A stretch of 64,000 nt of DNA from Elusimicrobiota bacterium (GTDB taxonomy: Bacteria; Elusimicrobiota; Elusimicrobia; UBA1565; UBA9628). The position numbers and the translations under genes were made by a program. Location of the stretch: contig JAHFCF010000002.1 of NCBI GenBank assembly GCA_023249645.1, forward strand, positions 62,001 to 126,000, given 5' to 3'. Position 1 is the stretch's first letter. Every line of letters starts with the position of its first letter. Below the pieces are notes generated by a model. It searched no databases, was not told where the DNA came from, and saw nothing but the letters and a program-made list of their open reading frames with translations. This document shows positions 1 to 15,813 of this stretch, piece after piece.

Positions 1-2027
1 ATGAGTGGCCGGCCGGCCGCGTTGCCCATGACGAAGGCCTCTCCGCCCTTGGCCCCGTAAAGGAAGGTCTGCCCCACATCCCCGTAGACCACGATGCGCC
101 CGGCCTTGAGGATCTGGCCCACCTGGTCCTGCGCGTTGCCATGCACGAAGATCTCCGCCCCATCGAGTCCCGAACCCAGGTAGTCGCCGCTCGATCCGTA
201 GACGTCGATGCGCACGCCCGCGCTTCCAGGCCCCAGGCCGCAGCCGAGGAACCGGTCGCCGCGCGCGCGGAAGATGACGAAGCGCTTCCAGCCCTGGCGA
301 ACGGCGTCCACGATGAGCCGGTTGACGGCCGAGGGCCCTTCCGGAGGGAAACCCTGGGCGTCGATGACCAAGGCCGCGCCGGGAGACTGAGGGGAAGGCA
401 GTCTGGCGGAGCGCGTGGAAGCTCGATCGACCCGGCAGTCCCCGGCCGCCGCCGGCAGTGCCGGCACGCTCTCGAGGATCGCGTTCACGGCGCGGTCCAC
501 GGCCGCCCAGACGAAGCCCGGCCTCTGCCTGCCCATATCCCAGCGGCGATCGCGCAGGACGCTGACCTCGTCCAAGGTCTTGCGCCAGCCCGATGAGGCG
601 AGCTTTCCGCGGACCTCGGAGAGGAACTCCGCGTCACGTCCGCGGCGCAGCAGGGACTTCAAGCCGTCCGAAGGCTCCAGAACCGGAGTCTCCTGCAGCT
701 GATCCTTCTCCGTGAAAAGTTCGTTGCCGAATTTATCGACGATATCCAGCTTCGCTTGGTCGCCTTCCCCCTGGACCGAGAAGACGAATGCCCCGCCGTC
801 CGTGCAGCTGCCGCCGCGGGCGTTCCAATAAGCGTCAGCGCAGGCGGGCACGTCCGGGTAGACCTGGGAGAGCTCCTCGAAGAAAGCGTCGATGGCCTGC
901 TTCTCCGAGGCGATGGCGCCGAAGCTCTTGGCCCCGCGCTGGACCGAGAAGACCTGCGGCCGAAGCATGGAGACGTCGGTGATGCCGATGAGCTGGGGAG
1001 AGAGGGTCTGTGGGTCGCAGCGGGCCACGATGAAGAACCACGGCCCGTCCGGGGAGCCGTTCAAGTGCGCGTTCTGCAGGGCCCGGTAGATGCGCTGGCG
1101 GCGCTTGCTCAAGCGCTCGAAATCGCCCTCGGGCGTGGGGCCCAGGGCCTCGATGACATGCTCCAGGGGATAGCCCAAGACGCGCGCGTAGTGGTCGAAG
1201 AGCAGGACCGAGACCTCGGTATCGGTCACGAAGAGCGGGACCATCCCCCGCTGGCGCAGATACTCGGTCACCGCGTAGTAGTTGGCAAAGTCGCCGTTAT
1301 GGACCAGGGCCTCGTGCAGACCGGCGAAGGGGTGCGCGCCGCCCGGATGCCAGACACGGCCGCGCGTGGGATAGCGCTGGTGCCCGATCCAGACCTTGGC
1401 CTGGGTCTCTTCCAGGCGATAGAAGCGGGCCACCTCCTCGGCGTAGCCCACGGCCTTGAGGATCATCAGGTCGCGGCCGTGCGAGAGCACGAAGGCTCGG
1501 GGAGGCGCGGCCTCGGCGTAGAAGCGGCGGTTGAGCTTGAAGCTGTTCTGGTAGACGAACTCATCCTCAGCCGCTGAGCGATCCGTGATCTGTGTCTCGG
1601 ACATGAAGCGTTCGAGCTCGGAAGCTTTTGCTCGGACAAAATAGCGCCAGACCGTGGGGGGCCGCAGTTCCAAGCCCACCGCGCGGTAGTCGCCCACGTC
1701 GGCTTGCCGTTCCATGTGCGTCACATCGAAGCGGGGGGTGATGAACTCGTTCTCCAAGGCCTGGCGCACGGATTCGTCGATATAGCCGATGTGCAGGGCA
1801 TAGTGCCGACGGTACTTCGGGAATAAGCCAGCGGCGGCCACGCCGCCGCCCTTGCCGTTGCCGCGGTTGCGCATCTGGCTGCACGGCCTGATGATGAGCT
1901 TGCCCGGCATGGGTACTGTGCCCACGATGCCGATGACCCCGCAGCCGCCCTCGCAATCGGGCTTGCCTGACGGGCGCAGCCCCTCGACGAGCCTCCTCCG
2001 GGCGGCTGTGATGGCCTCTTCGCTCAT
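1..2027 (-). CDS. Class II glutamine amidotransferase fused to GXGXG domain (3' end beyond window)
   Basis: The visible 675 codons begin with an N-terminal extension and then CGVIGIVG, with Cys29 as the likely class II (Ntn-type) glutaminase nucleophile, so about 28 residues would have to be cleaved or the Cys must act internally. The first ~400 residues look like the amidotransferase domain of split glutamate synthases. The last ~90 visible residues (GSGLDGAEIFVHGNAQDQVG, then GRIVVYGDVGQTFLYGAKGG) are the start of a GXGXG beta-helix as in the GltB C-terminus. The gene overlaps the preceding FMN-protein gene by ATGA, so the two are translationally coupled. Known family role: release ammonia from glutamine for a partner FMN synthase domain. 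It could serve glutamate synthase or an N-alkylglutamate-synthase-like reaction. The ORF track omits it because no stop lies in the window. Confidence 0.85.
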   Translation of the reverse strand, partial: MSEEAITAARRRLVEGLRPSGKPDCEGGCGVIGIVGTVPMPGKLIIRPCSQMRNRGNGKGGGVAAAGLFPKYRRHYALHIGYIDESVRQALENEFITPRFDVTHMERQADVGDYRAVGLELRPPTVWRYFVRAKASELERFMSETQITDRSAAEDEFVYQNSFKLNRRFYAEAAPPRAFVLSHGRDLMILKAVGYAEEVARFYRLEETQAKVWIGHQRYPTRGRVWHPGGAHPFAGLHEALVHNGDFANYYAVTEYLRQRGMVPLFVTDTEVSVLLFDHYARVLGYPLEHVIEALGPTPEGDFERLSKRRQRIYRALQNAHLNGSPDGPWFFIVARCDPQTLSPQLIGITDVSMLRPQVFSVQRGAKSFGAIASEKQAIDAFFEELSQVYPDVPACADAYWNARGGSCTDGGAFVFSVQGEGDQAKLDIVDKFGNELFTEKDQLQETPVLEPSDGLKSLLRRGRDAEFLSEVRGKLASSGWRKTLDEVSVLRDRRWDMGRQRPGFVWAAVDRAVNAILESVPALPAAAGDCRVDRASTRSARLPSPQSPGAALVIDAQGFPPEGPSAVNRLIVDAVRQGWKRFVIFRARGDRFLGCGLGPGSAGVRIDVYGSSGDYLGSGLDGAEIFVHGNAQDQVGQILKAGRIVVYGDVGQTFLYGAKGGEAFVMGNAAGRPL

Positions 2028-4912
2028 GATTCGATGGACTCCAGCAGATCGCGTCGGCCGCGGAGCTCGGCGATGCTCTTCAGGCCCAAGGCGGCCAGCT
2101 TGCGGCGCATCCTCTGCATCCAGGCGCGGTACATGCTCTCGATGCGGCCGGCCACCCACTCGGGCTCCAGGCGGCGGCTCAAGACCGGATCGGTCGTGGC
2201 GATGCCGATGGGACAACCCCGGCCGCGCTCACAGTTGCAGCAGCGCACGCAATCGATGGCCACGAGCTCCGCCGTGCCGATGACGCAGCCGTCCGCGCCC
2301 AGGGCCACGGCCTTCAAGACGTCATCGGTCGTGCGCACGCCGCCGCTGGCCATCAGGGTCACGTGGTCTCGGATGCCTTCCTTGACCAGGAAATCATGGA
2401 CCTGCACGATGCCGTATTCGATGGGCTGGGCGATGTTCTTCTTGGCGATGTCCGGAGCCGCCCCGGTCCCGCCATAGCCGCCGTCGAGGTGGATGATGTG
2501 CGCCCCGGCATAGTAGGCGCCCACGGCCACCATGTCCACGTCGCCGGGAGTGGAGACCTTGACCGAGAGCAGGAGCTCCGGCTTGATGGAGCGGACCCAG
2601 TCGAGGTGCTTCTTGTGGTCCTCGACGGAATAGACGCTGTGGAACGGGAACGGAGAGAAGAGGCTCGTGCCCGGCACGGCCTCGCGCATGGCCGCGACAG
2701 CCGGCGTGTTCTTTTCTCCCAGGAGATGGCCGCCCAGGCCCGGCTTGGCCCCCTGCGCGTACTTAAACTCCACCAGCCGCGCGCGCTGGATGGTCTCCTC
2801 GCGCACGCCGAAGAGGCCGGTGGCGATCTGCGTGATGATGTGGTCCGCATAAGGCTTGAGCTCGTCGGGATAGCCTCCCTCGCCGGTCGAGGTGAAGGTG
2901 TGCAGGCGCTGAGCGGCCAAGGCGCGCCCCTGCATGACGGCCAGCGACACGGATCCATAGGACATCCCGCCGCCGTAGATCGGCAAGCCCAGCCGGATGC
3001 GCGGGCCTTCCGGGCGGCGGTTGAGGTCCAAGGACAGATCGACATCCTCGGGCCGGATCTTGCTCGGCGGGCTTGAACGCCAGCGCAACAGATCAAACCC
3101 TCCGCCGGAGTCGCCGCGAGGCTCGTCCGATCCGTCATTCTTCCCGTGGGCGCGGGCGTCTCGCCAGACACCTTGCAGCAGGCCAGCTGTCCAACGCTTG
3201 TCTCCCAAGGTGCGCGGCAACTCGGAGGGCTCCACGCGGATGGCCTGCCAGGGGCAGATCTTGACGCAGGATTGCGTGCCGGAAAGGCAGGACTGCCCGG
3301 TGCAGCGATCATGACGAGGCTCATCGAGCTTGAGCTTTCCGTCCCCTCGGGAAAACACCCCCTGAGGACAGGCCGGCACGCAGAGTCCGCAGTCCGTGCA
3401 GCGGGCCCGGTCGATCAAGACGTTGAAGGAGGGCAGATCATCGGCGAATCTGGAAAGGCAAGAGTCCGTATTCGTAGTCTTCGTCTCCTCCGGCAAGCGG
3501 GGAGGGACTTTCGCCTGCGAGGACGATGGTCCAGAGGCCATCGTCAGTCTTTTCTTAAAATCCTGACGCGCGGCGTCGGCGAAGATGGCCCGGCCGGTCT
3601 CTCCGCGCAGGCGGCGCACGTCGCGCATGCCCATGGCTCCCAGGACCTCGAGGAGCTGGTCGCGCCAGGCCAACATCAGGTTGATCATGCGCGTAGCGCC
3701 CCATTGCGGATCCACCTTCTCCAGACCCCGCGGACAGGGATGCCCGGATCGGCATTCGCCGCAGAGGTGGCATTCGAGGGCCACGAAGAGCGGCAGGTCG
3801 ACCATGACGGCGTCCGCGCCCAGGATGATGGCCTTGGGCACGTGCTCGGCCGCGATGATGCCGCCCGAGGCCAAGAGGGTCACGCGGTCGCGCAGTCCGG
3901 CCTCCACGAGGCCGAGATGGACCTGGCGCAAGCGGGAGATCAAGGTCTCCCCGTCGGGCATGAGCCCCAGACTGTCGCCCGCCAGATGCAGGGTCTCTCC
4001 CATCCCGCCAGCAAGCCGCAGCGCCTCGGCCAATGACTCCTTGCCACCCGAGAGGCGATGCACGGTCAGGAGCTGGGGATTGATCCGCTTGGCCAGCGGC
4101 GCGGTCTCATCCGTCCAGGTGCCCGGCAAGAACTCCACCATGCTCGCCCATTCGAGCAGCTGGCGGTGCCGTTGCAAGTCCTGGGCGTCGATGCGCACGA
4201 TGAGATGGTTGAAATGCTCCTTCAGGGCTCCCGGCAGTCCATCGGCGGCAATGGCAGCGAAGCTGCTCAGCGCGCGCGCGCAGAGGGCCAGAGCCTTGAG
4301 GGCTCCCGGAGCGTCGCCCACGCCCGGAAGGTCCGGGACCTGGAAGAGGACCGGCAGGGAGATCTCCCGCGTGGGCGGGATGGGGGTGAGGAGATTGCCC
4401 TCCTCATCGTAGCGCATGCCGCAGAGGTTGGAAAGCTTGCGGCCGAGGTCGACGACAGTTGAGATGTGCTCTCGGCCGTGGATGCCGTCGCGGGTGGGAC
4501 GAACGATCTCGGACATGTCCGTCCAGAGGCCGTCGAAGCCGGCGCCGTCGAAGGGGCCGCCGTAGCCGGCCCCGCTGACCGGGATCTTGCCGGTCGAGGC
4601 CTGCTCGAGGGTGACGCGCATGACCGCCGGCGGGAAAGAGGCGTCGCCCTGTTTCAGGAAAGCGGGGTCCTCGATCATGCGCAGGGCATGGCGCGGACAG
4701 TCGAAAACGCAGGCGAAGCACGCCCGGCAGCAGGCCCCATCCGGCTCGGCCATGAGGCGCAGATCCTCCGGCCTGCGGGAGTGGCACTCGTAGGGGCAGG
4801 ACGCGATGCAGGTCCCGCAGGAGATGCAGCGGTCGCTGCGCTCCACGCGCCGGGGCGCCAGCACGGGGAAGCGGCCCGCGGCGCGCCGGGACTTCTCCGA
4901 TGAGCCGCTCAT
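2024..4912 (-). CDS. Ferredoxin/glutamate-synthase-like FMN protein with two tandem modules
   Basis: A 962-residue protein made of two similar halves. Each half has a dicluster ferredoxin segment (CISCGTCIASCP and CRACFACVFDCP; then CTDCGLCVPACP and a second Cys group) followed by a glutamate-synthase-type TIM barrel ending in ASGG, LGAD and a Cys-rich tail. The second half keeps the FMN/substrate loop GGYGGTGAAP, while the first half lacks it and looks catalytically dead. I start at the ATG at 4912 rather than the GTG at 4933, because this ATG overlaps the upstream stop as ATGA and has AGGGA seven bases before it. The gene also overlaps the next gene by ATGA. Likely role: the electron-fed synthase subunit that condenses glutaminase-derived ammonia with a 2-oxo acid. 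Confidence 0.85.
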   Translation of the reverse strand: MSGSSEKSRRAAGRFPVLAPRRVERSDRCISCGTCIASCPYECHSRRPEDLRLMAEPDGACCRACFACVFDCPRHALRMIEDPAFLKQGDASFPPAVMRVTLEQASTGKIPVSGAGYGGPFDGAGFDGLWTDMSEIVRPTRDGIHGREHISTVVDLGRKLSNLCGMRYDEEGNLLTPIPPTREISLPVLFQVPDLPGVGDAPGALKALALCARALSSFAAIAADGLPGALKEHFNHLIVRIDAQDLQRHRQLLEWASMVEFLPGTWTDETAPLAKRINPQLLTVHRLSGGKESLAEALRLAGGMGETLHLAGDSLGLMPDGETLISRLRQVHLGLVEAGLRDRVTLLASGGIIAAEHVPKAIILGADAVMVDLPLFVALECHLCGECRSGHPCPRGLEKVDPQWGATRMINLMLAWRDQLLEVLGAMGMRDVRRLRGETGRAIFADAARQDFKKRLTMASGPSSSQAKVPPRLPEETKTTNTDSCLSRFADDLPSFNVLIDRARCTDCGLCVPACPQGVFSRGDGKLKLDEPRHDRCTGQSCLSGTQSCVKICPWQAIRVEPSELPRTLGDKRWTAGLLQGVWRDARAHGKNDGSDEPRGDSGGGFDLLRWRSSPPSKIRPEDVDLSLDLNRRPEGPRIRLGLPIYGGGMSYGSVSLAVMQGRALAAQRLHTFTSTGEGGYPDELKPYADHIITQIATGLFGVREETIQRARLVEFKYAQGAKPGLGGHLLGEKNTPAVAAMREAVPGTSLFSPFPFHSVYSVEDHKKHLDWVRSIKPELLLSVKVSTPGDVDMVAVGAYYAGAHIIHLDGGYGGTGAAPDIAKKNIAQPIEYGIVQVHDFLVKEGIRDHVTLMASGGVRTTDDVLKAVALGADGCVIGTAELVAIDCVRCCNCERGRGCPIGIATTDPVLSRRLEPEWVAGRIESMYRAWMQRMRRKLAALGLKSIAELRGRRDLLESIES

Positions 4913-6819
4913 CGGGATGTCCCTGGCCGCCACTCAGGCCGCAGAAGTCCATAGGACTGCGCCACTTCCGGGGAGATCTTGTCCACCCTGGCCGCGAAAT
5001 CCGCGATGAGCTTGTCCGGCCTGCCGTGGAGCAAGGCCACAGATTTTTCCAGGACATCGTAGCAGGCGCGCAAAGGCAAGGCGGTCTGGCAGACCTCCTC
5101 GCAGAGCCCGCAATGCACGCATTGGAACATGCTCTGGGCGGCTTCGGCGGAAAGCCCATGCCCTAAAGCCTGCGCCGCCTCGAGCTTGCCGCGCGCGGTG
5201 GTGAGTTCTTCGCGGGTCACGATCCAGGCCGGGCAGACTGCGATGCAGGAACCGCAGGCCGTGCAGCGCTCGGCGGTCTCCTTGAGGAGCGCTGGGCCAG
5301 AGGCCGCCGCATCCGGCACGGACCATGCCTCGCCCGTGGGCCGGGCCAAGCCACGCGCCGCCAGGCCCAGGAGGGGGGAAAACCACCGGGCCAGCCGCAA
5401 ACCGATGACGTGAAGGATCGGTTGCAGGATCCAATCCCGCAAACTGAAGAAACCTGGCCTGGAAAGCGACTTGTGCGGGTTGAGGAGATTGTGCGGGTCG
5501 ACCTGGGCCTTGAGCGCCGACCTTCGGGATCTGACGAAGGGCAGGTTCCAGAGGCCGATCCCGTAAGGCCGTCCGCCGAAAGTCAGGGCCGCATGGGTGA
5601 GCAGCTGCACCAGAAGGAGGCGCAGTGGGTAATCCGCCCCGGCCGGGTCGCAGAGAAAAGTGAGGATGACCACCGAGTCCAGACTGTCCTGGGACTGATG
5701 GAACGATGTCTCGCAGGCCAGTTCATCTCCGAACCGTTGCGCCAGGCGTCGGGCATCGGCCAGATAGGCCGGCAGCCGGCCGTGCGGCAGGAGGACCTCG
5801 CTGGCCAGCATGCCGGGCCCGCGGCGCTGGGCCTTCATGGGGTAGAACCGTTCAGACCAAAGATAGCGCGCGGCCAAGACCGCGGCAACGCGGTGCGGGG
5901 GCAATCCTTTATGCTCCAGGAATTTCCCCGCTGACGCGGCATCGTCGAAATGAAGGAGCACCGCGCTTTGGGCTTCCACGATGTCATCCTTCAGGCCGGT
6001 CTTGTCCTTGAACAGGGCGTTCTCTTCCTTAAGACGCGCCGCATCGTAGGATTGAAGGTGCGTGGGCTTGTGCTGAGACGCGATCACGGCCTCCAGGAAC
6101 GAAGAGGCTCTCTGGTCGTCGTCAAAGTAGAACAAAAGGGGGTGGCTCTCCCGCGCCGCCGGACGCAAGGCCAAGGTGAGCTCAGTGATGAGCCCGAGCT
6201 GACCCTCGGCGCCAAAAAAATCAGCCATCCGGGGATCCGAGGACTTAAGGTCCCAGACCTCGCCGCAAGGCATCACCACGCGCATTCCCTGGACCGCCTC
6301 ACGAAGAGGACCGTACTTAAAGCCGTTCAAGCCTCGGCCGCCGGTCGAGACCCAGCCCGCGACGGTTGAAAAAAGGCCGGTCGGCGTGGTCCTGGGAGCC
6401 AGACCATGCGGCGAGACGGCATCCACAAGATCAGCCCAGCGCACCCCCGGCTCTACCGTGGCCGTGCGGGCCGCTGGATCCACGGACAGCACGCGGTTCA
6501 TGGACGAGAAGTCAGCCACGACCCCGGCCTCGGTCGGGACCGCGCCGCCAAAGGCCGAACTCGACACCCCGCGCGCAAAGAGGGCCAGCCCGCGCTCCCG
6601 GCAGAATTCGGTCAGGACTAAGACGTCGTCCTGCGTCCGCGGCTGGACCACCAGGAGGGGGGAGCGGGGCAATAGCGCGCGTTCCATGAAACCCGGCAGA
6701 CGGGCGAGGTCACGACGGCACAGGCTCCGCTCGAAATCGTCGGCGATGACCCGGCTGCCGACGGAAAGACGAGGACGGAGCGCTTCGACGGCCTCGGCGG
6801 CTGATGAGCGCGCTGTCAT
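4909..6819 (-). CDS. FAD-linked oxidase (GlcD/D-lactate dehydrogenase type) with C-terminal Fe-S clusters
   Basis: A 636-residue protein. The N-terminal ~210 residues form a PCMH-type FAD-binding domain (VVQPRTQDDVLVL, GGRGLNGFKYG, GAEGQLGLITELTLALRP). A FAD-oxidase C-terminal domain follows, and the last ~110 residues carry two four-Cys groups (CTACGSCIAVCP, CVHCGLCEEVCQ) as in glycolate oxidase GlcF or heterodisulfide-reductase-like partners. The family oxidises 2-hydroxy acids and passes electrons through Fe-S centres. The ORF track starts at 7188, but that extension is only the shadow of the OsmC gene; the ATG at 6819 fits the domain start. It is first in an operon with the FMN and glutaminase genes. 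Substrate is unknown; D-2-hydroxyglutarate would fit the neighbours (inference). Confidence 0.82.
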   Translation of the reverse strand: MTARSSAAEAVEALRPRLSVGSRVIADDFERSLCRRDLARLPGFMERALLPRSPLLVVQPRTQDDVLVLTEFCRERGLALFARGVSSSAFGGAVPTEAGVVADFSSMNRVLSVDPAARTATVEPGVRWADLVDAVSPHGLAPRTTPTGLFSTVAGWVSTGGRGLNGFKYGPLREAVQGMRVVMPCGEVWDLKSSDPRMADFFGAEGQLGLITELTLALRPAARESHPLLFYFDDDQRASSFLEAVIASQHKPTHLQSYDAARLKEENALFKDKTGLKDDIVEAQSAVLLHFDDAASAGKFLEHKGLPPHRVAAVLAARYLWSERFYPMKAQRRGPGMLASEVLLPHGRLPAYLADARRLAQRFGDELACETSFHQSQDSLDSVVILTFLCDPAGADYPLRLLLVQLLTHAALTFGGRPYGIGLWNLPFVRSRRSALKAQVDPHNLLNPHKSLSRPGFFSLRDWILQPILHVIGLRLARWFSPLLGLAARGLARPTGEAWSVPDAAASGPALLKETAERCTACGSCIAVCPAWIVTREELTTARGKLEAAQALGHGLSAEAAQSMFQCVHCGLCEEVCQTALPLRACYDVLEKSVALLHGRPDKLIADFAARVDKISPEVAQSYGLLRPEWRPGTSR

Positions 6820-12007: not shown

Positions 12008-12756
12008 CAGAACTCCTTGCGCCGAAACAGAGAGCGGCCCAGGACGAGCCACACGGCCGAGTAGAGCGCCGCGTACGCGAACCACCACCAGAGCGGCGCT
12101 TCCAAGGCCGCGCGGTCGCGCAGATTATAGAGCTGCAGGTCCGGCACGATCCAGGAAAGCGCGGCCAGCGGCGCTGCCGCAAGAACCGAGGCGCGCTGAA
12201 CAAGGAACCGGATCTCCGGCAGGAAATGCCCCAGGGTCCAGCCCACGGCAGCGAGAACGCCGGCGGTGAGGGCTGAGGAAGAGAAGACGGCCAAAAAGGT
12301 CGCCAAGGCGGACGTCACGAACACCTTGAGGTAAGCCCCCAGGAAAGCCAGGGCATAAGGATCCGTCCAACGCCAGCCCTTGGCCGCCAGGATGGCCAGA
12401 TGAAAGACGGCCATGAGGACCATGGAGGCCAGGACCGACAGCATCAAGCCCAGAAAACGGCCCAGAAGATATTCCCCGCGGCTGACCGGGCGAGTGAGGA
12501 TCAGGTAGATGGTCTTGGTCTCCATCTCGTGCAGGATGATGGTGACGGCGCCGTAGAGGGCGCCGGCCAGGCCCATGAGCTCGATGAATCCGAGGCCGAA
12601 ATCGTAGAGGACCCGGACCTCCTGCTCCACGGCCAGAACCCCCAGGAGCAGGCTCATATAAAGGAAGACGCCGGCAAAGGCCACGGACAGGAGGAAAAAA
12701 CGGCTGCGCAGGTTCTCGCGCCAGCCGGTCAAAGCCAGAAGGAGGACGTTTTTCAT
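12007..12756 (-). CDS. ABC-2 type transporter permease
   Basis: A 249-residue integral membrane protein with about six hydrophobic helices (e.g. FFLLSVAFAGVFLYMSLLLG and VLASMVLMAVFHLAILAA) and the ABC-2 motif region around KTIYLILTRPVSRGEYLLGR. The start at 12756 overlaps the ATPase stop by ATGA. Together with the ATPase it forms an exporter of the ABC-2 class; substrate unknown. The motif (TRPVSRGEYLLGRF) is typical of NosY/DrrB-like permeases. Confidence 0.85.
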   Translation of the reverse strand: MKNVLLLALTGWRENLRSRFFLLSVAFAGVFLYMSLLLGVLAVEQEVRVLYDFGLGFIELMGLAGALYGAVTIILHEMETKTIYLILTRPVSRGEYLLGRFLGLMLSVLASMVLMAVFHLAILAAKGWRWTDPYALAFLGAYLKVFVTSALATFLAVFSSSALTAGVLAAVGWTLGHFLPEIRFLVQRASVLAAAPLAALSWIVPDLQLYNLRDRAALEAPLWWWFAYAALYSAVWLVLGRSLFRRKEF

Positions 12757-13472
12757 CGCACGGTCTCCACGAAGAGTCCTTCCAGGCCTTCCGGAGCGCT
12801 GTCCCATTCCTTGTGCGGGATGAGGCGCGCCAGGCGCCCCTCTTTCAAGACGCCGACGCGGTCGCAGAGCTTCTCCACCTCGGAGATGCTGTGCGACGAG
12901 ACGACCAGGGTCTTGCCCTTCTCGCGCAGGGTGCCCAAGAGATCCCGGAACTCCTTGATGGCCAAGGGGTCGAGCCCGCTGACCGGCTCGTCGAGGATGA
13001 TGAGGCGCGGGTCGTGCAGGATGGCCTGCGCCAAGCCCACGCGCTGGACCATGCCCTTGGAGAACTCTCCCAGGCGGCGGTCGCCCTGCGCCGAGAGCCC
13101 GACCAAGGAGAGCACCTCCTCGATGCGCGCGGCCATGGCCTGCTCAGGCAGACCCGAGAGCCGTCCGTAGAAGCGCAAGGACTCGCGCGGGGTGAGGAAG
13201 GAGTAGAAGCAGGGAAGTTCCGGCAGAAAACCCACCTGCGAGAGGTCCGGCACGCGCACATCCCCCGAGGTCGCCCTCAGGAGTCCCAAAGCCAGCTTGA
13301 AGGTCGTGGTCTTGCCGCTGCCGTTCAAGCCGAGAAGCCCGAAAGATTCGCCTTCGGGGATCGAGAGCGACAGATCGACGATGCCGCGGCTGTATGTCGT
13401 GCGGCCCAGATGCGAGCGGGAATAGGTCTTGGTGACTTTCGAGAATTCAAGGCTGAACGGCTTCTCACTCAT
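12753..13472 (-). CDS. ABC transporter ATP-binding protein (ABC-2 exporter)
   Basis: A 239-residue ATPase: Walker A GLNGSGKTTT, Q-loop region QVGFLPELPCFYSF, signature EFSKGMVQRVGLAQA, Walker B LIILDEPVSGLDP and the switch His in VVSSHSIS. It powers the coupled permease. The start overlaps the end of lon by eight bases (ATGAGTGA). The signature reads FSKGM rather than LSGGQ, a common variant in CcmA/NatA-like exporters. Confidence 0.9.
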   Translation of the reverse strand: MSEKPFSLEFSKVTKTYSRSHLGRTTYSRGIVDLSLSIPEGESFGLLGLNGSGKTTTFKLALGLLRATSGDVRVPDLSQVGFLPELPCFYSFLTPRESLRFYGRLSGLPEQAMAARIEEVLSLVGLSAQGDRRLGEFSKGMVQRVGLAQAILHDPRLIILDEPVSGLDPLAIKEFRDLLGTLREKGKTLVVSSHSISEVEKLCDRVGVLKEGRLARLIPHKEWDSAPEGLEGLFVETVR

Positions 13473-15813
13473 GGGCAGTGATCGGTTCCTTGGTCCTGGA
13501 AGGGACCAAAGCCAGCTTGAGGACCTGGTCGAAATGCTCGACAGGCACCATCTTCAAAGCCTTGAGCACATCCTCCGGGATGTCCTCGAGGTCCTTGCGG
13601 TTGCCTTCCGGATAGATGACGGTCCTGATGCCGTCGCGATGCGCGGCCAGGACCTTCTCCTTCAACCCGCCGATGGGCAGCACGCGGCCGCGCAAGGTCA
13701 TCTCGCCGGTCATGGCCACGGAGCCGGCGACGGCCCGTCCGCTGATCAGGCTGGCCAAAGCCGAGGCGATGGCGATCCCCGCGGAGGGACCATCCTTGGG
13801 CGTGGCGCCGTCCGGGACATGGACGTGGAAGTCCATGTCCTTGAAGGTTTCCAAGGATCCGCCGATAGTTTTTGAGACGGATTTTACGTAGGAGAAGGCG
13901 GCCTGGGCCGACTCGGTCATGACTGAGCCGAGCTTGCCCGTGAGCTTGAGCTCGCCCTTGCCTGGCACGGTCACGGCCTCCACCGCCATGGTGATGCCGC
14001 CCACCTCGGTCCAGGCCAGGCCCGTGGAGACTCCCACGGCATTGTGCGTGCGGCGGTCATGGTGGAACTTGGGGATCCCCAGGAATTCGGGGAGGTTCTT
14101 CGCGTCCACGCGGATCGCCGCTGCCTCTCCTGAAGCGAAGCGCTTGGCCGCCTTGCGGGCCAAAGAAGCCATCTCGCGGTCGAGGTTCCTCACGCCGGCC
14201 TCGCTCGTGTAATCGTCGATGGCGCGCTCGACCGCCCCGTCGTTGACCTTCAGACGCCCGGGCTCGATGCCGTGCTCCTTCAACTGCTTGGGCAAAAGAT
14301 AGGTCTTGGCGATGAGGAGCTTTTCTCTGTGCGTGTAGCCGGAGAAGCGCAGGATCTCCAGGCGGTCCTGGAGGCTCACGGGGATGCCTTCCAAGGTATT
14401 GGCCGTGCAGACGAACATGACCTGGGAGAGGTCGAACTCCACGTCGAGATAGTGGTCGACGAAGGTGTTGTTCTGCTCCGGATCGAGCACTTCCAGAAGC
14501 GCCGCGGCCGGGTCTCAGCGCCAGTCCGTACCCATCTTGTCCACCTCGTCGGGCAGAAAGAGCGGATTCTTGCTGCCCGCCTGTCGCAATGACTGGATGA
14601 TGCGGCCGGGCAAGGAGCCGATGTAGGTGCGGCGATGACCCCGGATCTCCGCCTCATCCCGCACGCCGCCCAACGAAAGGCGGACGAACTTGCGGTCCAT
14701 GGCGCGCGCGATCGACTTGCCCATGGAGGTCTTGCCGACTCCCGGGGGGCCCACGAAGCAGAGGATGGGGCCGCGCAGGCCCTTGGTCAGACTGCAGACG
14801 GCCAGATGCTCCAGGACGCGCTCCTTGATCTTTTTTAAGTCATAGTGGTCCGCTTCTAGGATCTCCTCAGCGCGCGCAATCTCGAGGTTGTCGCGCGTCT
14901 TCTTGGACCAGGGCACGCGGACCATCCAATCGAGATACGTGCGCGCCACCGTCGCCTCGGGAGAGTAGGGCATCATCTTCTCCAGGCGCCCCACTTCCTT
15001 CAAAGAAGCTTGCAGAGCCTCGTCCGGCATGCCCGCCTCGGCCACGGCCTTCTTCAGGTCTTCGATCTCCTGGGCGAAGTCGTCCTTCTTTTGGAGCTCC
15101 TTCTGGATGGCCTTCATCTGCTCCGTCAGGTAGTACTCCTTCTGGGACTTCTCCATCTGCGTCTTGACGCGGGCGTGGATCTTGCGCTCGACATTGAGCA
15201 TCTCGATGTCGGCTTTGAGAAGTTCGAGGAGCTTGAGCAGCCGCTCGGAAGGCCGCAGGATCTCCAAGAGGGTCTGACGCTCCGCGTTCTTGGCCACCGC
15301 ATGAGCGGAGACGGCGTCGGCCAGCTGGGCCGGATTCTCGATGCGGGCAAAGACGCCCAGGGCGTCCGCCCCGCCGCGCCCGGAGAGCTTGAAATGCTCT
15401 TCCGCAGACTCGAGGATGCGGCGCATCAGGGCCTTGATCTCCGGCGTGACCGGCTCAGCGACTTCCGGATAATCCAGGTCCGCCTGCCAATAGCCGAGTT
15501 CCTGAGAAAAACGCAAAGCCGTGACCTGTGCCCGACAGAGGCCCTGCAAAAAGACCTTGAGCGTGCCGTCGGGCATCTTGAGATATTGGACGACCTCGCA
15601 CAGCACGCCCAGAGAGAAAAGGTCCTTCTCAGCCGGGTCCTCGATGGCCACGTCCCGCTGGGCCACCACGCCTAAAAGTTTTCCGCAAACCATAGCCGCT
15701 TCCAGGGCCTTGATGGACTTGGGCCTGCCCACGGACAGCGGCAGGACCATCTCAGGGAAGACCACCAGGTCACGGACCGCCAAGAGCGGCAGGGTCTTCG
15801 GGCGTTGGCTCAT
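13465..15813 (-). pseudogene. lon: Lon ATP-dependent protease interrupted by one in-frame TGA
   Basis: Two same-frame ORFs (14518-15813 and 13465-14514) together encode a normal-length Lon of about 781 residues, separated by one TGA at 14515-14517. The N-terminal substrate domain, Walker A (GPPGVGKTSMGKS), Walker B region, AAA+ lid and the Ser-Lys protease domain ([20 protein letters not shown]) are all present. The TGA replaces the conserved Gly in the usual DWRGDP, a one-base change from GGA. Fourteen codons upstream the Walker B strand reads FLPDEVDK where Lon has FLLDE, a second unusual change. Either the genome carries a disabled lon or there is local sequence error. It overlaps tig (ATGA) and the ABC ATPase. 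Confidence 0.85.

What the first reader, a model, noticed from the sequence alone, without database searches (positions are those of the whole stretch)
1..6819. Three-gene FAD oxidase / glutamate-synthase-like / glutaminase operon that may run redox-neutral
Seen: an FAD 2-hydroxyacid-oxidase-type protein with two Fe-S motifs is coupled by ATGA overlaps to an FMN glutamate-synthase protein with four ferredoxin groups and to a glutaminase-GXGXG fusion. No NADPH-binding GltD-type subunit is present. Inference: electrons from a 2-hydroxy acid pass through the Fe-S centres to the FMN domain. If the acid is 2-hydroxyglutarate, its oxidation gives both the 2-oxoglutarate and the two electrons that glutamate synthase needs, so 2-hydroxyglutarate plus glutamine would yield two glutamates without external reductant. 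An N-alkylglutamate synthase or another amino-acid synthase is the alternative.
Basis: partly seen in the sequence, partly recalled or inferred. Interest (0 to 1): 0.75.

Follow-up and report, generated by a model that had tools for sequence, protein, structure and literature searches.

The report
Glutamate synthase with swapped electron-input subunit
Three joined genes appear to encode a glutamate-making enzyme complex whose usual NADPH-driven subunit is replaced by an unrelated flavin/iron-sulfur protein; the same exchange recurs in many anaerobic bacteria and archaea, but the proposed fuel, 2-hydroxyglutarate, is unlikely because that protein lacks the known reaction site.

Summary
The operon is real: FAD/Fe-S protein (636 aa), FMN/Fe-S glutamate-synthase protein (962 aa) and glutaminase-GXGXG protein (825 aa, running 450 bases past the window edge), joined by two ATGA overlaps.

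It looks like a glutamate synthase. The glutaminase site and the FMN-barrel sequence are conserved. Relatives sit beside glutamine synthetase, ammonium transporter, PII, CarAB, HisHF or ProAB. This is the only Glu_synthase protein in this genome; six congeners have none.

The FAD gene is tightly bound to this core: every full-length orthologue found by searching with the FAD protein itself (18 of 18 genomes) lies directly before the FMN gene(s). In most other loci the same position holds MvhD and/or MetV/MetF, never together with the FAD gene. So the FAD protein is best read as an exchangeable electron-input subunit replacing GltD.

The 2-hydroxyacid idea is not supported. No orthologue read (about 30) keeps the HxGDGNxH and GEHG site; 22 of 23 GlcD-like controls, and this genome's own GlcD, do. 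The electron donor stays unknown.

Verdict: new variant of a known kind, uncharacterised, apparently horizontally acquired here. One oddity: no glutamine synthetase was found in this 93%-complete genome.

The parts
4909..6819 (-). FAD/Fe-S protein gene (636 aa, P0001): GlcD-fold FAD domain plus two 4Fe-4S motifs; proposed electron-input subunit
   Evidence: FAD_binding_4 112.7 bits; FAD-oxidase_C only 25.9 bits; AlphaFold pLDDT 82, best PDB matches D-lactate dehydrogenases
5233..5265 (-). first 4Fe-4S motif of the FAD protein (C519, C522, C525, C529)
   Evidence: invariant in all aligned orthologues
5089..5121 (-). second 4Fe-4S motif of the FAD protein (C567, C570, C573, C577)
   Evidence: invariant in all aligned orthologues
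5545..5580 (-). position of the missing GEHG metal/His motif: reads GRPYGIGLWNL around invariant Y419 (residues 414-425)
2024..4912 (-). FMN/Fe-S glutamate-synthase protein gene (962 aa, P0002): fused degenerate half A and FMN half B
   Evidence: Glu_synthase 341 bits; E 5e-50 to solved GltB chains
2081..3004 (-). FMN/2-oxoglutarate barrel (half B, residues 637-944)
   Evidence: PF01645 positions 61-368; conserved blocks
4796..4828 (-). 4Fe-4S motif A1 (C29-C39)
   Evidence: invariant columns
4697..4729 (-). 4Fe-4S motif A2 (C62-C72)
   Evidence: invariant columns
3368..3400 (-). 4Fe-4S motif B1 (C505-C515)
   Evidence: invariant columns
3254..3304 (-). 4Fe-4S-type Cys group B2 (C537, C542, C549, C553)
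   Evidence: invariant columns
2213..2251 (-). Cys group C888/C891/C894/C900 at the place of the GltB 3Fe-4S cluster
1..2027 (-). glutaminase-GXGXG fusion gene (825 aa, P0003); continues 450 bases beyond the window start (stop at L003:9550)
1941..1943 (-). predicted catalytic cysteine C29 of the class II glutaminase, in EGGCGV
   Evidence: invariant, together with the IGHQRYPT, HNGDFANY and TDTEV blocks
1..218 (-). window part of the GXGXG domain (residues 604-754 of P0003)
   Evidence: PF01493 45.2 bits

Best explanation
A glutamate synthase (glutamine:2-oxoglutarate aminotransferase) rebuilt from three polypeptides. The glutaminase releases ammonia from glutamine and passes it to the FMN half of the second protein, where 2-oxoglutarate is aminated and reduced to glutamate. 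Electrons enter through the FAD/Fe-S protein, which takes the place of the NADPH-dependent GltD subunit, and travel through up to six 4Fe-4S clusters to the FMN. Shown by sequence: the parts, their conserved sites, complete linkage of the FAD gene to the core, exchange of this position for MvhD and/or MetV/MetF in other lineages, and nitrogen-assimilation neighbourhoods. Inferred: the reaction, the direction of electron flow, and that FAD is reduced by a two-electron donor (a small organic substrate handled without the usual metal site, or a partner protein). The donor is unknown; 2-hydroxyglutarate is unlikely.
For: Parts and sites. Core found in several bacterial and archaeal phyla: (329 relatives). 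Position upstream of FMN-A in 42 core-fetched loci with readable upstream: FAD 12, MvhD and/or MetV/MetF about 26, other 4; FAD never together with MvhD/MetVF. FAD-centred searches of about 1,285 genomes: 13 of 13 newly found full-length orthologues and 5 of 5 in the window's phylum lie directly upstream of FMN-A; a score gap (498 bits and more against 355 and less; one orthologue split by a frameshift) separates orthologues from other GlcD-like proteins. Neighbours: Amt-PII-GlnA-FAD-A-B in L114; GlnA in L055, L081, L121, L190; HisHF in L121, L189, L190; CarAB in L050, L055; ProAB-like in L192-L194. Sole strong Glu_synthase protein in this genome and in most FAD-type genomes checked.
Against: No biochemistry. 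No glutamine synthetase (PF00120) was found in the window's genome, 93% complete, so the source of glutamine is unclear. Glutamate dehydrogenase is present, so the operon is not the only possible route to glutamate. Donor unidentified. The AlphaFold model of the FMN protein is poor (pLDDT 58), so complex geometry was not tested. In two archaeal loci a PyrK-like and GltD-like pair follows the operon, so a pyridine-nucleotide link is not excluded there.
Confidence: 0.72

Rival explanations
1. One reading: the FAD protein oxidises D-2-hydroxyglutarate (or another 2-hydroxy acid) and its electrons and product feed glutamate synthase, so the cycle needs no external reductant.
For: GlcD-type fold, best PDB matches D-lactate dehydrogenases; R324 invariant, at the position of a conserved Arg of the family (its equivalence to the carboxylate-binding Arg is from memory); balanced stoichiometry.
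Against: HxGDGNxH and GEHG absent in all orthologues read, present in 22 of 23 GlcD-like controls and in this genome's own GlcD. Zn2+ is required for activity in P. aeruginosa D-2-hydroxyglutarate dehydrogenase, whose metal-free form is inactive (PMC10034468, PMC11843331). FAD-oxidase_C scores only 25.9 bits against 235.8 for the own GlcD paralogue. Metal-free D-lactate oxidation by other members of the superfamily (from memory) keeps this from being zero.
Confidence: 0.06
2. The FAD subunit is an electron-transfer adaptor reduced by another redox protein (ferredoxin, an Etf-like or NfnAB/Sud-like flavoprotein), not by a small substrate.
For: Known substrate-activating site lost; the equivalent position elsewhere holds MvhD, an electron-wiring protein; PyrK/GltD-like pair next to the operon in L064 and L108.
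Against: Several polar and aromatic residues of the FAD pocket region (R324, K329, E341, Y419) are invariant or nearly so in all orthologues, which suggests a bound ligand; a ferredoxin donor would not need FAD.
Confidence: 0.3
3. N-alkylglutamate synthase or another amino-acid synthase (N-methylglutamate synthase, Glx-type).
For: Same domain set (glutaminase, GXGXG, FMN) as those enzymes, from general knowledge.
Against: Neighbours are GlnA, PII, Amt, CarAB, HisHF, ProAB-like; no methylamine or alkylamine genes were recognised in the loci read; usually the only strong Glu_synthase protein of its genome.
Confidence: 0.06

Closest known systems
NADPH-dependent glutamate synthase GltB/GltD (PDB 1ea0, 2vdc, 6s6s)
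   Same: Class II glutaminase, FMN barrel (E 5e-50), GXGXG domain, Fe-S electron path
   Different: Split and reordered into FMN A+B and glutaminase-GXGXG; four extra ferredoxin-type Cys groups; no GltD; a GlcD-fold FAD/Fe-S protein in its place
Putative F420-dependent glutamate synthases FGltS(I/II) and FrhB10 clusters of methanogens and ANME (PMC3448663, PMC9012536)
   Same: A glutamate synthase core with an exchanged electron-input subunit, inferred from gene clusters
   Different: Input subunit there is FrhB/FdhB-like (F420); here a GlcD-fold FAD/Fe-S protein. The ANME-1 loci L050 and L055 read here carry this FAD gene upstream of FMN-A
GlcD / D-lactate / D-2-hydroxyglutarate dehydrogenases (FAD_binding_4 + FAD-oxidase_C)
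   Same: Fold and FAD-binding domain
   Different: Metal/His site HxGDGNxH and GEHG lost throughout the family; extra C-terminal two-cluster Fe-S domain
N-methylglutamate synthase MgsABC / GlxBCD (from general knowledge)
   Same: Glutaminase, GXGXG and FMN modules on separate polypeptides
   Different: Fusion pattern, A/B duplication, FAD subunit, nitrogen-assimilation context

Membership tests
Glutamate synthase (GOGAT) | Class II glutaminase with catalytic Cys and ammonia-releasing site | tested here: met
   PF13522; invariant C29, RYPT, HNGDF, TDTEV blocks
Glutamate synthase (GOGAT) | FMN barrel of the Glu_synthase family | tested here: met
Glutamate synthase (GOGAT) | GXGXG domain | tested here: met
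   PF01493 45.2 bits (cut-off 32.5)
Glutamate synthase (GOGAT) | Forms two glutamates from glutamine and 2-oxoglutarate | not testable with these tools
   needs an assay
NADPH-GOGAT (GltBD) | GltD subunit in the operon | tested here: not met
   none in the operon; the genome's two GltD-type proteins sit in other gene clusters
Metal-dependent D-2-hydroxyacid dehydrogenase (GlcD/LdhD/D2HGDH) | HxGDGNxH and GEHG metal/His motifs | tested here: not met
   controls 22 of 23 positive
Metal-dependent D-2-hydroxyacid dehydrogenase (GlcD/LdhD/D2HGDH) | FAD_binding_4 fold | tested here: met
N-methylglutamate synthase | Linkage to methylamine utilisation genes | tested here: not met
   none recognised in the loci read
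FGltS (F420-dependent) | FrhB/FdhB-like subunit | tested here: not met
   FAD_binding_4 protein instead

The most novel reading that the evidence does not exclude
The FAD/Fe-S subunit oxidises a small metabolite directly, so that glutamate synthesis is driven without NAD(P)H or ferredoxin; in the sister lineages the MvhD-MetVF version would draw electrons from the methyl-tetrahydrofolate/Hdr network. Glutamate synthase would then be a modular core plugged into whatever donor each anaerobe has.
Probability: 0.35. Interest if true: 0.75.

Novelty: new variant of a known kind. Interest (0 to 1): 0.58.

Why it matters
[quoted passage not shown] This points to a further type, spread over several bacterial and archaeal phyla known largely from metagenomes, in which the electron-input subunit has been exchanged. 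Finding the donor would show how these organisms pay for nitrogen assimilation, and the conserved FAD site without metal ligands defines a testable subfamily of a well-known flavoprotein fold.

Tried and rejected
Viral-contig scan with the FAD protein: nothing. Structure prediction of the FMN protein: too poor to use. One FAD-like hit in the phylum (G037, L039, 1,024 aa) and the similar proteins of about 1,030 aa are a separate, unlinked family (FAD, Fe-S and a Cys-rich C-terminal part) that also lacks the metal motifs; not counted as orthologues, although L039 is one of the 19 rows of the alignment. Two apparent motif hits (L128, L131) come from the neighbouring FMN frame, not from the FAD protein. 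Bin contamination considered: the flanking PilT and OsmC genes have close matches in congeners (best 77% identity each), so the contig belongs to the genus and the operon is better explained by gene transfer or differential loss. Tree-based claim of repeated exchange: needs at least 3 changes of the FAD label, but well-supported branches force only 1, so it stays a suggestion. Literature searches found no description of this FAD-type synthase in the held open-access library; most subscription papers were not searchable.
Full report
What is there. Three minus-strand genes joined by two ATGA overlaps: FAD/Fe-S protein 6819-4909, FMN/Fe-S protein 4912-2024, glutaminase-GXGXG protein from 2027 to 450 bases beyond the window. 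An OsmC-like gene lies 61 bases upstream on the same strand; a convergent gene ends 11 bases beyond the last stop.

The core is a rearranged glutamate synthase. The C-terminal half of the FMN protein matches solved GltB chains over 313 residues at E 5e-50 and keeps the conserved blocks of the family. The N-terminal half is a diverged copy of the same domain with its own two 4Fe-4S motifs and lacks most of those blocks. In most relatives the two halves are separate genes; they are fused in the window and in 8 of the loci read. The glutaminase keeps Cys29 and the other expected blocks in all five proteins aligned.

Spread. A genome-collection scan with the glutaminase-GXGXG alignment found 329 relatives; the best 80 (L042-L121) come from Acidobacteriota/Aminicenantes, Desulfobacterota, Chloroflexota, Planctomycetota, ANME-1/Methanophagales, Thermoplasmatota and others. 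The FMN halves are adjacent in nearly all loci long enough to show them; L052, L073 and L075 show the glutaminase-GXGXG gene without them.

What sits at the electron-input position. In 42 core-fetched loci with readable upstream sequence, the genes before FMN-A are the FAD gene in 12, MvhD and/or MetV/MetF in about 26, something else or unreadable in 4; the FAD gene and MvhD/MetVF never occur together (identities of MvhD, MetV, MetF by Pfam). Seen from the FAD side, searches of 295, 297, 400 and 293 genomes gave 18 full-length orthologues not already known through the core, all 18 directly upstream of FMN-A (one is split by a frameshift). This is strong evidence that the FAD protein works with the core. 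That it delivers electrons is inference from its position, its Fe-S clusters and the exchange pattern.

Product. FAD-type loci lie beside glutamine synthetase (L055, L081, L114, L121, L190), ammonium transporter and PII (L114, L190), HisHF (L121, L189, L190), CarAB (L050, L055), and ProB/ProA-like genes in three Thermoplasmatota genomes (L192-L194). The linked core is the only strong Glu_synthase protein in most FAD-type genomes checked and in the window's genome. Glutamate is the likely product.

The FAD site. Every orthologue aligned lacks the HxGDGNxH and GEHG motifs; the second position reads PYG-x-G-x-WN in most, with Y419 invariant, and R324, E341 and K437 are invariant too. In the same test 22 of 23 GlcD-like controls from the phylum have both motifs; the remaining one is a truncated locus. 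This genome's own GlcD paralogue has both and scores 235.8 bits on FAD-oxidase_C against 25.9 for the operon protein. The fold is still closest to D-lactate dehydrogenases. Published work on P. aeruginosa D-2-hydroxyglutarate dehydrogenase states that the metal-free enzyme is inactive and that Zn2+ triggers proton abstraction (PMC10034468, PMC11843331). So canonical 2-hydroxyacid oxidation is unlikely; an unknown substrate or a protein donor remains open.

History. The window's glutaminase-GXGXG protein groups with Acidobacteriota/Aminicenantes sequences (SH-aLRT 100), away from three same-class genomes. Six congeners, one of them 99% complete, have no Glu_synthase protein, while flanking genes match congeners. 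Horizontal acquisition, or loss in all the others, fits.

Open points. No PF00120 glutamine synthetase was found in this genome although glutamate dehydrogenase is present. Either it lies in the missing 7%, or glutamine is taken up. The donor is unknown. Prior literature found here describes exchanged input subunits only for F420 types, as predictions (PMC3448663, PMC9012536).

Noticed in passing
L054, L059, L072, L078, L082, L084, L088, L091, L102, L106, L107, L112 (upstream of FMN-A): The same glutamate-synthase core lies behind MvhD, MetV and MetF genes (methylene-tetrahydrofolate reductase), mostly in Desulfobacterota, Chloroflexota and Planctomycetota; possibly methyl-tetrahydrofolate or Hdr-type electrons feed glutamate synthesis.
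   Followed up: partly
L046, L048, L049, L067, L068, L097, L101, L110: MvhD alone directly before FMN-A, without MetV/MetF: a third arrangement of the electron-input position.
   Followed up: partly
window genome G000: No glutamine synthetase catalytic domain (PF00120) found in a 93%-complete genome that carries a glutamate synthase.
   Followed up: partly
L132-L136, L138, L143-L149, L151, L152: Separate family of about 1,030-aa FAD/Fe-S proteins with a Cys-rich C-terminal part that also lacks the 2-hydroxyacid metal motifs; function unknown.
   Followed up: partly
L037, L038, L041: An MFS transporter gene of one cluster directly follows the glutaminase-GXGXG gene in three same-class genomes.
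   Followed up: no
L064 and L108, about 12,750-15,135: PyrK-like and GltD-like (Sud/Nfn-type) gene pair directly after the FAD-type operon in two archaeal loci.
   Followed up: partly
L188:3978-4421 (-): AsnC/Lrp-type regulator gene divergent from the FAD gene; a similar gene appears at L183:710-1195.
   Followed up: partly
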